A stretch of 20,080 nt of DNA from a virus. The translations under genes were made by a program, and so were the position numbers. Below, one piece after another: positions 3,392 through 13,323 of this stretch. The stretch covers positions 1 through 20,080 of IMG/VR virus record IMGVR_UViG_3300042288_000287; one strand, given 5' to 3'. How positions within the stretch are numbered: the first letter of the stretch is position 1; every line of letters starts with the position of its first letter. The notes beneath the pieces were generated by a model. That model saw only the letters and a list, made by a program, of their open reading frames with translations, did not search any database and was not told the origin of the DNA.

Positions 3392-4882
3392 ATGTCGCAA
3401 CAAGCGTCTGGGACCCCGCCCAAAGTTGATCTCAACGATCCGCTGATCAAGGAGCTGAATAAGCTACCGCTGCCGGATTTGTTGGCATACAAGAGCCGGT
3501 TGGAGTGGGCGAGTAAACGTCACAAACACCAAAAGCCGCCGAAGGGTGATTGGACTGTGTGGTTGATGCTCGCTGGTCGTGGCGCGGGTAAGACTCGTGC
3601 GGCAGCGGAGTGGGTGTGGTGGCAGGCGTACAAAGCGCCGGAAACGAGATGGCTGGTGTGCGCACCGACCTCGGCTGACATTCGCGACACTTGCTTTGAG
3701 GGTGATTCCGGTTTGATCTCGGTCATGCCAGAGAAAATCGTGGGCGAATACAACCGCTCGCTCTCGGAGATTATTTTAACCAATGGGTCCCTGATCAAAG
3801 GGATCAGCGCGGAGACTCCCGACCGGCTCCGTGGTGGTCAGTGGCATGGTGCGTGGACGGACGAGCTGGCTGCGTGGCAGTACGACCAAGAAGCGTGGGA
3901 CATGATTATGTTTGCGCTACGTCTAGGGTCCCATCCACGAATCGTTGCCACCACCACTCCGAAGCCCAAGGCCATCATTCGGGATCTGGTGGAGCGTGAC
4001 GGAGCCGATGTACACGTTACGAGGGCCTCGACTTACGAGAACATTGCGAATCTAGCGCCGACTTTCCAGCAACAGCTCTTGAAGTTTGAGGGCACGACGC
4101 TCGGACGGCAGGAAATTCACGCCGAAGTCTTAAATCCGGAAGAGCAGGGCATCATCAAGCGCCCTTGGGTTCAGCTCTGGCCAGCGAAAAAGCCCCTGCC
4201 CATACTGGAACACATCGTGATGAGCCTAGATACGGCCTTTACGGAGCAGACTCGCGACAAGAAAACCTCAGATTCCGACCCCAGTGCGTGTGTGGTACTC
4301 GGACTTTTCTACGAAAACGAGAAACCAAACATCATTTTGCTCGATTGTTGGGAAGATCGGCTTGGAATGCCCGATTTGATCCAGCGAGTGAAGCGAGAGA
4401 TGGAGGTTTTCTACGGCGACGATGAGCAAAAGCCGATGATTAAGCCGAAATTTGGTCCCGGTCGCATGTTAAACACCGGAAGAAAGCCCGATACCATCGT
4501 AATCGAAGACAAAGGCAGCGGAATTTCGCTTCGGCAGATGCTGGCACGCGAGGGAATCATCGCTCACGCTTACAATCCGGGAAAAGCGAGCAAACTCACT
4601 CGATTGCACATGGTTTCGCACCTATTTGCGAGCGGAATGGTGTGGTTTGTGGAGTCTGATAAGCGAAAAGGTCAGATTCGCTCGTGGGCGGAGCCATTGT
4701 TGTATCAACTGTGCTCGTTTTCGGGTGAGGGAACCATCAAGCATGACGATTTGATGGACGCTTGCACCCAAGGTTTACGTTTCCTTGCCGATAAAGATAT
4801 GATAAGCGTGAGTAAGCCTAAGCCGTTGCAGCCTAGGATGATTGTGAACGAGCGCCCAAGAGGTAATCCGTATGGCGTCTAA
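3392..4882 (+). CDS. terL: terminase large subunit
   Basis: This is a 496-residue DNA-packaging motor and nuclease. The N-terminal ATPase carries Walker A LAGRGAGKT (residues 60-68), Walker B 'WTDE' with D157 and E158, and a coupling motif ATTTP (186-190). The C-terminal RNase H-like nuclease shows acidic residues in the expected order: D280 in 'MSLDTAF', E372 in 'VIEDKGSG', and D452/D453 in 'HDDLMDA'. All key residues are present and the length is normal. The protein would dock on the portal, translocate DNA into the prohead and cut the concatemer. Its final 11 bases overlap the next gene. The ribosome site before ATG 3392 is weak, so translation may be coupled to the preceding small gene. 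Confidence 0.97.
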   Translation: MSQQASGTPPKVDLNDPLIKELNKLPLPDLLAYKSRLEWASKRHKHQKPPKGDWTVWLMLAGRGAGKTRAAAEWVWWQAYKAPETRWLVCAPTSADIRDTCFEGDSGLISVMPEKIVGEYNRSLSEIILTNGSLIKGISAETPDRLRGGQWHGAWTDELAAWQYDQEAWDMIMFALRLGSHPRIVATTTPKPKAIIRDLVERDGADVHVTRASTYENIANLAPTFQQQLLKFEGTTLGRQEIHAEVLNPEEQGIIKRPWVQLWPAKKPLPILEHIVMSLDTAFTEQTRDKKTSDSDPSACVVLGLFYENEKPNIILLDCWEDRLGMPDLIQRVKREMEVFYGDDEQKPMIKPKFGPGRMLNTGRKPDTIVIEDKGSGISLRQMLAREGIIAHAYNPGKASKLTRLHMVSHLFASGMVWFVESDKRKGQIRSWAEPLLYQLCSFSGEGTIKHDDLMDACTQGLRFLADKDMISVSKPKPLQPRMIVNERPRGNPYGV

Positions 4883-11067: not shown

Positions 11068-11982
11068 ATGGCAGTCCCAATGCGTAGTACTGACTTTCGT
11101 TCCATCGTCGAGCCTATTCTTAACGAGGCTTTCGATGGCGTTTATGACCAGCGTGCTGACGAGTGGAAGCAAGTCTTCGTCCAGCAGCAGGGCATTCCCC
11201 GCAACTACCACGAAGAGCCGGTTCTGTACGGATTCGGCGCTGCTCCGGAACTTCCGGACGGCACCGCTGTCACGTATGACGCTGGCGGCGTGCTCTTCTT
11301 GCAGCGTTACGTCTACAAGGTCTACGGCCTTGCGTTCGCGCTCACGAAGGTGCTCGTGGAAGATGGTGACCACATCCGTATCGGCCAGACCTATGCCAAG
11401 CACTTGGCGCAGTCGCTGATCGAAACGAAGGAAACCCTCTGCGCTAACGTGTTGAACCGCGCCTTCACGCCCGGCTTCAACGGTGGCGACGGCGTGACGC
11501 TGGTGAATACGGCTCACCCGATTGCTCAGGGTACGTTCAGCAACCAGCTGACGACTCCGGCAAACCTGTCGCAGACCTCACTTGAGCAGATCCTCATTCA
11601 GATCCGCAACGCTGTTGACAACAACGGCAAGCGCATCCGTTTGAACCCGGAGAAGCTCGTTGTGTCGCCGTCGAACGTGTTCCAAGCGGAAGTGCTCCTC
11701 AAGAGCGTTCTCCGTACCGGCACGGCTGACAACGACATCAACCCGGTGAAGTCGATGGGCCTCCTCGCTGGCGGTCAGGCTAACCTGTCGCGTTTGACTT
11801 CAACCACTGCCTGGTGGGTGAAGACGGATGCTCCGGAAGGCTTGAAGTTGATGATGCGTCGCGGTCTTGAGAAGTCTATGGAAGGCGACTTCGAGACTGA
11901 TTCAACTCGCTTTAAATCGACAGAGCGTTACGCAGTTGGGTTCACGGACCCGCGCACTGTGTACGGCACGGCTGGCGTTTAA
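11068..11982 (+). CDS. major capsid protein
   Basis: This is a 304-residue protein with the strongest ribosome site in the window (AAGGAGGA at 11053-11060, 7 bases before ATG), fitting very high expression. Recognisable features are the N-terminal 'STDFRSIVEPILNEAFDGVYDQRADEW', the 'DAGGVLFLQRYVYKVYGLAFALTKVLVEDGDH' segment, the 'VTLVNTAHPI' turn (about 145-154) common to HK97-fold capsid proteins, and a C-terminal 'WWVKTDAPEGLKLMMRRGLEKSMEGDFETDS' to 'ERYAVGFTDPRTVYGTAGV'. It would self-assemble on the scaffold into the prohead shell. No N-terminal cleaved delta domain is evident, consistent with a separate scaffold gene. Confidence 0.9.
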   Translation: MAVPMRSTDFRSIVEPILNEAFDGVYDQRADEWKQVFVQQQGIPRNYHEEPVLYGFGAAPELPDGTAVTYDAGGVLFLQRYVYKVYGLAFALTKVLVEDGDHIRIGQTYAKHLAQSLIETKETLCANVLNRAFTPGFNGGDGVTLVNTAHPIAQGTFSNQLTTPANLSQTSLEQILIQIRNAVDNNGKRIRLNPEKLVVSPSNVFQAEVLLKSVLRTGTADNDINPVKSMGLLAGGQANLSRLTSTTAWWVKTDAPEGLKLMMRRGLEKSMEGDFETDSTRFKSTERYAVGFTDPRTVYGTAGV

Positions 11983-11984
11983 GT

Positions 11985-12007
11985 CCTTGATTTGTAAGGG
12001 ATTTTTT
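11985..12007 (+). terminator. weak terminator after capsid gene
   Basis: A short CCTT/AAGG stem (11985-11988 with 11996-11999, 7-base loop) is followed after two bases by six T residues (12002-12007). The stem is too short to be efficient, so it would give attenuation and leave much read-through into the endonuclease region. GATTTGT near 11989 can alternatively pair with ACAAATC at 12014-12020. Confidence 0.35.
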
Positions 12008-12010
12008 CTC

Positions 12011-12040
12011 TAGACAAATCCTTGCCCGGCTCTGTATGAT
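12011..12040 (+). promoter_or_regulatory. sigma70-like promoter for homing endonuclease
   Basis: A -35 of TAGACA (12011-12016, 5 of 6 consensus) and a -10 of TATGAT (12035-12040, 5 of 6) are separated by 18 bases. Transcription would start near 12047, about 23 bases before the endonuclease ATG. The left arm of the hairpin at 12021-12087 lies inside the spacer, so a transcript from this promoter would lack it. Confidence 0.6.
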
Positions 12041-12087
12041 GGTTGCCTACTTTGAAACAGGTAATCATTATGCAGCAGCCGGGCAAG
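12021..12087 (+). promoter_or_regulatory. inverted repeat enclosing endonuclease ribosome site and start codon
   Basis: CTTGCCCGGCT (12021-12031) and AGCCGGGCAAG (12077-12087) are an exact 11-bp inverted repeat. The 45-base loop contains the AGGT ribosome site (12059-12062) and the ATG (12070), and the right arm covers codons 3-6. On read-through RNA from the capsid gene the stem would sit in the ribosome footprint. After a two-base mismatch, three more A-T pairs can form outside the stem. Confidence 0.6.
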
Positions 12088-13008
12088 TTTTATGTGTATG
12101 TTTATCTTGATCCCCGTCCGGGGAAAGGGCTTCAGCCCATCTACGTCGGCAAAGGCACCGTAGATTTAGACCGCGCCAGTTATCACTGGGAACGTCGGTG
12201 CGTTAATCCTTTTTTGCAGAGCGTGCTGGATAAAATCCGGGTGGCCGGTCTTGTTCCGCAGATCACTATTGCCGCGTACATGGAGGACGAAGAAGATGCG
12301 TTCGCTATGGAGCGCGACTTAATTGCCCAATACGGGCGGCGAGATTTGCGTACTGGGTCTCTTTGCAATTTAACCGAAGGTGGCCAAGGCACTGCTGGCC
12401 TAAAGTACAGCGAAGAAAGGCTACGTAAAAAGCGCGAGCAATGCTCTACTCCAGAATGGAAAGCTTTAATGTCAAAGCTAGCCTCAGAAAACTGGACATC
12501 TACTGAGTACAGAGAAAAAACTCTTAATGCCAGAAGAGTCTATGAACAAGACCCCGCCTACCGCGCTCGTCTCCGCGAAGCCATCCTGAAGAGCCGCACC
12601 GAGCAAGTTCGCAACAAGATCAGCGTAGCCATGCGCACCAACTGGGAGTCCGAGGAGTACCGGACTAAGCAGGCAACGTCACGAGCAGAAGCGCACGCAC
12701 GACCTGAGGAGAAAGTCCGTAAGAGCAAAGCCTCGAAAAAGGTGTGGACAGAGCATGGCGATAAGATTAGATTAGCGATTAAGACCGCGAAATCGACTCC
12801 GGAGCGAAAGGCCGAGGCTTCTAGAAAGTCAAGGCAGTATTACGAGAGTGAAGAAGCTCGTAAGAAAGCAGGGGAGTATTCGAAGGCGTACAACACGCCA
12901 GAGGTTCGCGCAGCGAAGGCAGAATTGTTGAAGCAGCGTTGGGCCGACCCCGAGTTCAGAGCAAAGATGCTGGCAAACCGGAAACCCAAGGCTGCAAAGG
13001 GTGTTTAG
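12070..13008 (+). CDS. free-standing GIY-YIG homing endonuclease
   Basis: This is a 312-residue protein from ATG 12070, preferred over an upstream TTG at 12043 because AGGT lies 7 bases before it. The N-terminal nuclease has 'YVYVYLDP' (8-15) and 'PIYVGKG' (23-29) as GIY/YIG elements, then R35 and H39, the metal-binding glutamate in 'MERDLIAQYG' (E81) and the closing 'LCNLTEGGQGTAG' (99-110). From about residue 115 to the end is a chain of degenerate helical repeats of the type W/Y-x-x-[SDT]-x-E-[YF]-R (NWTSTEYR, NWESEEYR, YYESEEAR, RWADPEFR), probably the DNA-recognition part. Such enzymes cut a target in related genomes and are copied in by repair. It sits between the capsid gene and the next structural gene. 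Confidence 0.9.
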   Translation: MQQPGKFYVYVYLDPRPGKGLQPIYVGKGTVDLDRASYHWERRCVNPFLQSVLDKIRVAGLVPQITIAAYMEDEEDAFAMERDLIAQYGRRDLRTGSLCNLTEGGQGTAGLKYSEERLRKKREQCSTPEWKALMSKLASENWTSTEYREKTLNARRVYEQDPAYRARLREAILKSRTEQVRNKISVAMRTNWESEEYRTKQATSRAEAHARPEEKVRKSKASKKVWTEHGDKIRLAIKTAKSTPERKAEASRKSRQYYESEEARKKAGEYSKAYNTPEVRAAKAELLKQRWADPEFRAKMLANRKPKAAKGV

Positions 13009-13023
13009 TTCTAGGTGTAACCA

Positions 13024-13077
13024 GCTCATCTGACCGGCCTAGCGGACGATGCACAGACAGATGAGCGACTCGTGCAT
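13024..13077 (+). promoter_or_regulatory. pseudoknot-like stem pair upstream of a ribosome site
   Basis: GCTCATCTG (13024-13032) pairs exactly with CAGATGAGC (13058-13066), and ATGCAC (13049-13054) pairs exactly with GTGCAT (13072-13077). The order a-b-a'-b' is that of an H-type pseudoknot, or of two mutually exclusive stems. The last arm touches the GAGGA ribosome site (13078-13082) of the gene at 13090. Confidence 0.45.
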
Positions 13078-13089
13078 GAGGATATTTCA

Positions 13090-13323
13090 ATGGGATCGAC
13101 GACATTTTCTGGGCCGGTTAACTCGCTGAATGGGTTCTCTGGCACCATCCTTTCTAACTCGGCCAACATCACCAATCTTGTTTGCAGCACGCTGACGATT
13201 GGTTCGACTCAGCTCACCAACGGTTCTGTGTCTGGCACGGTCGCCACTCAGGCGGGTCGCATTCCCGTTCTCGTTGGAAGCACCACGCTCTACATCGCTC
13301 TGTACAGCAGCCTGACGCCGTAA
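13090..13323 (+). CDS. small structural protein, probably fibre- or head-associated
   Basis: This is a 77-residue protein from ATG 13090, chosen over GTG 13072 because GAGGA lies 7 bases before the ATG. It is rich in Ser, Thr, Gly and Asn ('MGSTTFSGPVNSLNGF', 'NSANITNLVCSTLTIGSTQLTNGSVSGTV'). This resembles the repeat style of the fibres further downstream, and the C-terminus 'RIPVLVGSTTLYIALYSSLTP' is hydrophobic. I recall ORFs opening with this 'GSTTFSGPV' phrase after capsid genes in environmental phages. It is followed immediately by a strong terminator. The role is inferred from composition and position. Confidence 0.75.
   Translation: MGSTTFSGPVNSLNGFSGTILSNSANITNLVCSTLTIGSTQLTNGSVSGTVATQAGRIPVLVGSTTLYIALYSSLTP

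What the first reader, a model, noticed from the sequence alone, without database searches (positions are those of the whole stretch)
12011..12087. Endonuclease start codon inside a hairpin that its own promoter can bypass
An exact 11-bp GC-rich inverted repeat (12021-12031 / 12077-12087) encloses the ribosome site and ATG of the GIY-YIG endonuclease. Its left arm lies between the -35 (TAGACA) and -10 (TATGAT) of a promoter whose start would fall near 12047. RNA reading through from the capsid gene could therefore form the hairpin and hide the start, while RNA from the internal promoter lacks the left arm and stays translatable. Phage T4 I-TevI, also a GIY-YIG enzyme, is controlled on this principle. 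If it holds here, it is an independent case for a free-standing endonuclease placed after a capsid gene.
Basis: partly seen in the sequence, partly recalled or inferred. Interest (0 to 1): 0.72.

Follow-up and report, generated by a model that had tools for sequence, protein, structure and literature searches.

The report
Promoter-bypassed hairpin hiding endonuclease start
In a group of uncultured phages, a selfish DNA-cutting gene sits just after the capsid gene behind a very stable RNA hairpin that hides its start codon, and a promoter built into the hairpin can make a shorter RNA without the lock; this repeats, in phages unlike T4, a control trick known from T4-type phages.

Summary
The 11-bp arms are the base of a 28-bp helix (12021-12048 with 12059-12087, one bulge, 10-nt loop; MFE -58.1 kcal/mol, z -10.5) that buries the ribosome site and ATG of a GIY-YIG endonuclease. 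Freeing the start costs about 23 kcal/mol on read-through RNA and about 5 on RNA starting near 12047; other genes in the window cost 2-12. The -10 hexamer TATGAT pairs exactly with ATTATG, which contains the start codon. Eighteen distinct copies of the element keep the helix with compensatory changes, and G-U rather than A-C pairs point to the + strand RNA as the folded molecule. Hexamer spacing never changes; TATGAT is kept in all but one endonuclease-bearing copy. Two endonuclease-deleted remnants keep the helix but have lost the -10 box. HEG-less relatives usually have a terminator after the capsid gene; this family has none. It is a new case of a known kind (T4 I-TevI, segB; Aeh1 mobE). 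New are the non-T4 phage group, the sigma70-like promoter, capsid-gene read-through and a second covarying hairpin over the -35. Timing is unknown.

The parts
11068..11982 (+). Major capsid protein gene upstream; source of presumed read-through RNA
   Evidence: PF25209 Phage_capsid_4 E 1.4e-13; relatives 82-97% identical
11989..12020 (+). Hairpin 1: GATTTGT/ACAAATC outer stem and AGGGA/TCTCT inner stem, overlapping the -35 box
   Evidence: fold; inner-stem pairs with double changes in relatives (helix 1)
12011..12016 (+). -35 hexamer TAGACA
   Evidence: invariant in all 18 elements, including L149/L154 where hairpin 1's outer stem is partly lost
12021..12048 (+). Left (blocking) arm of hairpin 2; contains the -10 box
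12035..12040 (+). -10 hexamer TATGAT; in RNA pairs with 12067-12072 ATTATG, which includes the start codon
   Evidence: kept in HEG-bearing copies except L149 (CATGAT), lost in HEG-deleted remnants L107 (TGTGAT) and L116 (CGTGAT)
12046..12048 (+). Predicted transcript start (6-8 nt after the -10 box); inferred
   Evidence: Opening cost of the start stays at or below 7.4 kcal/mol for any start from 12035 on
12059..12087 (+). Right arm of hairpin 2: ribosome site AGG (12059-12061), ATG, codons 2-6; bulge at 12076
12070..13008 (+). GIY-YIG endonuclease gene, 312 aa
   Evidence: Invariant Y8-Y12 motif, Y25-x-G27, R35, E81, N100, H39 nearly so; Foldseek: GIY-YIG restriction enzyme 9u75 prob 1.00, I-TevI catalytic domain 1ln0 prob 0.92; phrog_314 homing endonuclease 1.4e-8

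Best explanation
The module (hairpin 1, promoter, hairpin 2, GIY-YIG gene) is a free-standing mobile endonuclease gene with a built-in translation lock. RNA that reads through from the capsid gene folds hairpin 2, hiding the ribosome site and the AUG, so the endonuclease is not made from that RNA. The promoter whose -10 box lies in the left arm makes an RNA beginning near 12047; it lacks nearly all of the left arm, so its start is open and is translated. Shown by sequence: the helix, its conservation with compensation, the + strand RNA bias, promoter retention and its loss with the gene. Inferred: that the promoter fires, that capsid RNA reads through, and that translation differs.
For: Fold and z-score; open short RNA (cost of opening the ribosome site and AUG 19-25 kcal/mol long, 2.4-7.6 short across 18 elements; 2-12 for other genes in the window). 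Compensation: covariation score 0.188 against 0.132 +/- 0.009 shuffled and at most 0.079 slid; pairs 44/93 and 45/92 CU/AG to UG/CA in 5 sequences, with amino acid 3 changing Q to T, while the bulge base varies freely. 48 G-U cells on 12 pairs against 4 A-C cells on 3, pointing to + strand RNA as the folded molecule. The AUG's G pairs with the -10 box's first T as a U-G wobble in 16 of 18, which suits a promoter and a start codon at once and pairs only in RNA. Spacer 18 in all 18 and -35 invariant. The -10 A is mutated in both HEG-deleted remnants and in no HEG-bearing element. No terminator after the capsid gene in the family, whereas 47 of 77 HEG-less relatives have one by a strict test. Precedent: PMC2988022 section 12.
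Against: No transcript or translation data. The promoter is a consensus match of a kind expected by chance about once in 2.5 kb, and its conservation is partly explained by pairing. Only two outer-stem pairs of hairpin 2 show double changes, possibly a single event spread by recombination; 11 of 21 pairs never vary, and the count of pairs with double changes alone is not above shuffles (168/500). L149 has CATGAT with an intact gene. The phage host is unknown.
Confidence: 0.77

Rival explanations
1. The hairpin acts mainly on the capsid RNA: as a terminator-like or RNase III-processed structure closing the capsid transcript in place of the terminator that relatives have; hiding the start is a by-product.
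For: The GC-rich stem is followed by TTTTATG; a canonical terminator is absent in this family but common in relatives; the review cites intrinsic terminators inside T4 mobE and segF.
Against: Only four U in a row, and those are codons F7-Y8. Both HEG-deleted remnants keep the hairpin and still carry a canonical terminator right after it, so it seems not to suffice. A terminator does not need a right arm that overlaps ribosome site and AUG in every copy, nor a promoter in its left arm.
Confidence: 0.1
2. The inverted repeats work at the DNA level, as an operator for the endonuclease (I-TevI-like autorepression) or a cruciform or single-strand site for mobility.
For: Hairpin 1 overlaps the -35 box; I-TevI represses itself at an operator that overlaps its promoter (PMC2988022).
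Against: Variation is G-U tolerant (48 G-U against 4 A-C cells), which marks + strand RNA; T-G would be a mismatch in DNA. No similarity above shuffles between the promoter region and the endonuclease-free site in six of seven relatives, the seventh unconvincing.
Confidence: 0.06
3. The internal promoter is inactive; the hairpin simply silences the endonuclease on capsid RNA, with rare translation by breathing or through a different activator.
For: No measured start; L149 has a weakened -10 with an intact gene.
Against: Invariant spacing, invariant -35 including bases unpaired in hairpin 1, and -10 loss linked to gene loss.
Confidence: 0.07

Closest known systems
Phage T4 segB (free-standing GIY-YIG homing endonuclease)
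   Same: Free-standing GIY-YIG gene with an RNA structure over its ribosome site and a predicted late promoter placed to bypass it (PMC2988022).
   Different: T4 tRNA region, T4-type late promoter; here a capsid gene upstream, sigma70-like promoter, unrelated phage group, and a second conserved hairpin.
Aeromonas phage Aeh1 mobE
   Same: Free-standing endonuclease whose ribosome-site hairpin is described as shown to reduce translation initiation (PMC3014915, PMC2988022).
   Different: HNH enzyme inside nrdA; here GIY-YIG after an intact capsid gene.
Phage T4 I-TevI
   Same: GIY-YIG fold; start hidden on long RNA, exposed on RNA from an internal promoter.
   Different: Intron-encoded; td read-through is early/middle and the bypass promoter late. 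Here there is no intron, and the read-through gene is a capsid gene.
T4 gene e (lysozyme) leader
   Same: Same lock-and-bypass principle on an ordinary phage gene (PMC3014915).
   Different: Not a mobile gene; T4 late promoters.

Membership tests
Promoter-bypassed start-sequestering hairpin of phage homing endonucleases (I-TevI, segB, mobE type) | Stable helix pairing ribosome site and start codon on the long RNA | tested here: met
   MFE -58.1, z -10.5; 21-24 of 26 nt around the start paired upstream in the intact close relatives folded; covariation
Promoter-bypassed start-sequestering hairpin of phage homing endonucleases (I-TevI, segB, mobE type) | Promoter placed so that its RNA lacks the 5' arm | tested here: met
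   Sequence and spacing; short-RNA opening cost. Promoter activity itself untested
Promoter-bypassed start-sequestering hairpin of phage homing endonucleases (I-TevI, segB, mobE type) | Bypass promoter is a T4-type late promoter (TATAAATA) | tested here: not met
   TAGACA-18-TATGAT is sigma70-like. No phage sigma factor found in 7 records, some partial. Promoter type is regarded here as lineage-specific, not essential to the principle; so 'works like' rather than 'T4-type member'
Promoter-bypassed start-sequestering hairpin of phage homing endonucleases (I-TevI, segB, mobE type) | Translation repressed on long RNA and active on short RNA | not testable with these tools
   Needs reporters or infection data
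GIY-YIG nuclease | GIY-YIG motifs, catalytic R, E, N and fold | tested here: met
   Invariant residues in 38 sequences; Foldseek 9u75 prob 1.00, 1ln0 prob 0.92. Sequence HMMs in Pfam/NCBIfam give no GIY-YIG hit
Homing endonuclease | Cuts the gene-free allele and is copied into it | not testable with these tools
   Presence/absence at one site in related phages is consistent
I-TevI-type autorepressor | Operator resembling the homing site over the promoter | tested here: inconclusive
   Similarity not above shuffles in six of seven HEG-free relatives; one score (L030 minus strand 14.5 against shuffled maximum 12.0) above
Intrinsic terminator | GC stem followed by a U tract | tested here: inconclusive
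   Stem followed by TTTTATG; not called

The most novel reading that the evidence does not exclude
The timing is the reverse of T4: the sigma70-like promoter makes the endonuclease early, and the abundant late capsid read-through RNA, locked by the hairpin and possibly running through the promoter, switches the endonuclease off when capsids are made; the lock then stands in for the terminator that relatives keep after the capsid gene.
Probability: 0.25. Interest if true: 0.68.

Novelty: new member of a known kind. Interest (0 to 1): 0.56.

Why it matters
It would show that phage endonuclease genes outside the T4-type phages reached the same lock-and-bypass control, using host-type promoters and a capsid gene as host transcript. 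The family offers 18 distinct element copies and two natural endonuclease-deleted remnants in which the lock survives and the bypass promoter has lost its -10 box, so the selective reason for each part becomes testable. The -10 box and the start-codon-blocking strand being the same six bases is a neat double use.

Tried and rejected
Rfam search of the hairpin: only a chance match to mir-944. Covariance-model search of 90 loci (capsid relatives, distant GIY-YIG relatives, Caulobacter phage RW and the window): the window only, plus chance L085 at E 0.79, so the element travels with this endonuclease. Relaxed pattern scans found no further contig with the element beyond those already known (L236 is the contig of L154). 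Distant GIY-YIG relatives (about 25-42% identity) mostly have no comparable helix. Phage RNA polymerase search uninformative, since its control rang nowhere; sigma factor search negative. Genome contigs: two distant MAG hits only. Tree of the gene: the UG/CA stem type appears in three places, but recombination may explain this, so I do not count three events. Synonymous conservation of codons 2-6 (0.12) is no lower than of codons 10-40 (0.12), so it is not evidence for the stem by itself.

Full report
WHAT WAS CLAIMED. An exact 11-bp inverted repeat encloses the start of a GIY-YIG endonuclease after a capsid gene, with a promoter whose RNA would lack the left arm.

CHECK. The arms and hexamers are where stated. 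Folding 11983-12100 shows the 11 bp are the base of a helix of 28 pairs with one bulge and a 10-nt loop (MFE -58.1; 200 dinucleotide shuffles -25.8 +/- 3.1; z -10.5). The site holds the two most stable of 1998 sampled 118-nt stretches of the window. RNA from 12047 has no such structure. Within the helix the -10 hexamer 12035-12040 pairs with 12067-12072, ATTATG, so the same six bases serve as promoter element in DNA and as the strand that covers the start codon in RNA; the initiator G meets the first T of the -10 box as a U-G wobble.

ENERGETICS. The cost of opening the ribosome site and AUG is 23.0 kcal/mol on the long RNA and about 3-7 on the short one, depending on its 5' end and on how much downstream sequence is included; any transcript start from 12035 on gives 7.4 or less. 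Other genes of the window cost 2-12 in the same test. Across 18 distinct elements the long RNA costs 19-25 and the short 2.4-7.6.

RELATIVES. Searches of IMG/VR found close relatives of the endonuclease (76-100% amino acid identity), and those with readable flanks have the same module between a capsid gene and the next virion gene. Eighteen distinct elements were aligned (A3). With the stated structure, 96.1% of cells pair; covariation score 0.188 against 0.132 +/- 0.009 in shuffles (0 of 500) and at most 0.079 when slid. Double changes in hairpin 2 sit at two adjacent pairs in five sequences and go with an amino-acid change at codon 3, while the neighbouring bulge base changes freely. Eleven of the 21 outer pairs never vary, and the number of pairs with double changes is not itself above shuffles (168/500), so the compensation evidence is good but rests on few events, with recombination possible. 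The inner part of the stem has changed greatly in sequence yet is still paired in each copy folded.

STRAND. On the structure there are 48 G-U cells over 12 pairs and 4 A-C cells over 3 pairs, and the + strand always folds better than the - strand. This points to RNA read in the gene's direction rather than to a DNA palindrome.

PROMOTER. The -35 TAGACA is invariant in all 18, including two bases unpaired in hairpin 1 and two copies (L149, L154) in which hairpin 1's outer stem is partly lost; the spacer is 18 in all. The -10 TATGAT is kept in all endonuclease-bearing elements except L149 (CATGAT). Two endonuclease-deleted remnants, L107 (same sequence in L111, L115) and L116, keep hairpin 1 and hairpin 2 with the first codons of the gene but have TGTGAT and CGTGAT, losing the key A; each has a canonical terminator right after the hairpin, then another GIY-YIG gene with its own promoter-like site. 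Two cases are few, but they are what the bypass model predicts.

CONTEXT. By a strict test, 47 of 77 endonuclease-free relatives have a terminator within 110 nt after the capsid gene, and many of the others show GC-rich hairpins that missed my criteria; no member of this family has one. Against the near relative L033, the module replaces a stretch of terminator plus promoter. Read-through is therefore likely but unmeasured.

PROTEIN. Pfam and NCBIfam give no GIY-YIG hit, but phrog_314 homing endonuclease matches at 1.4e-8, 38 sequences share Y8-Y12, Y25-x-G27, R35, E81, N100, and the AlphaFold model matches GIY-YIG nuclease 9u75 (prob 1.00) and the I-TevI catalytic domain 1ln0 (prob 0.92). The C-terminal two thirds is predicted as a string of helices, presumably the DNA-binding part (inference).

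LITERATURE. The principle is established for I-TevI, I-TevII, I-TevIII, T4 segB and Aeh1 mobE (PMC2988022 sections 9-12; PMC3014915). The same review places T4 segD between genes 23 and 24 (gene 23 is the major capsid gene, from my own knowledge), so an endonuclease beside a capsid gene also has a precedent. The present case is outside T4-type phages (nearest named capsid relatives: Caulobacter phages RW, KcrB, RLK and GB2A at 75% DNA identity).

TIMING. In T4 the read-through RNA is early/middle and the bypass promoter is late. Here the read-through RNA is that of a capsid gene and the bypass promoter is sigma70-like; no sigma factor was found in seven records, some of them partial, and the RNA polymerase search was uninformative. 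The reverse order is therefore possible but not shown.

VERDICT. Observation confirmed and larger than described; interpretation supported short of experiment; a new, well-conserved member of a known kind of control.

Noticed in passing
window 13024-13083 (alignment A5), before the gene at 13090: A strongly covarying pseudoknotted RNA element (P1 CTCATCT/AGATGAG, P2 CCG/CGG, pseudoknot ATGCAC/GTGCAT abutting the GAGG ribosome site) upstream of the gene that follows the capsid gene or endonuclease. 14 of 16 pairs show double changes; covariation 0.750 against 0.256 +/- 0.027 shuffled. Present with and without the endonuclease in many capsid relatives; no Rfam match. Looks like an undescribed riboswitch-like or autoregulatory leader.
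   Followed up: partly
L025, L047, L049, L107, L116 (GIY-YIG); L030, L052, L103 (possible HNH-type short ORFs): The site after the capsid gene looks like a hotspot for different endonuclease genes; the GIY-YIG ones follow a canonical terminator and appear to have an open ribosome site.
   Followed up: partly
L173 near 3930-4001; L191 near 3935-4001: Distant GIY-YIG genes with other candidate start-region hairpins: L173 has TATAAATA, like T4 late promoters, at the top of the left arm; L191 pairs GACTGTCT with AGACAGTC over its ribosome site.
   Followed up: no
window 12100-12130: Codons 11-20 of the endonuclease are almost free of synonymous change (0.012 against about 0.4 over most of the gene), at CCCCGTCCGGGG and GGGCTTCAGCCC; reason unknown.
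   Followed up: no
window 12424-12550: Residues about 119-160 of the endonuclease are much more variable than the rest and look mosaic between relatives, as if the DNA-reading part is swapped.
   Followed up: no
window 11989-12020: Hairpin 1 over the -35 box covaries in its inner stem (three pairs with double changes), yet its role is unexplained; it is absent from the short RNA.
   Followed up: partly
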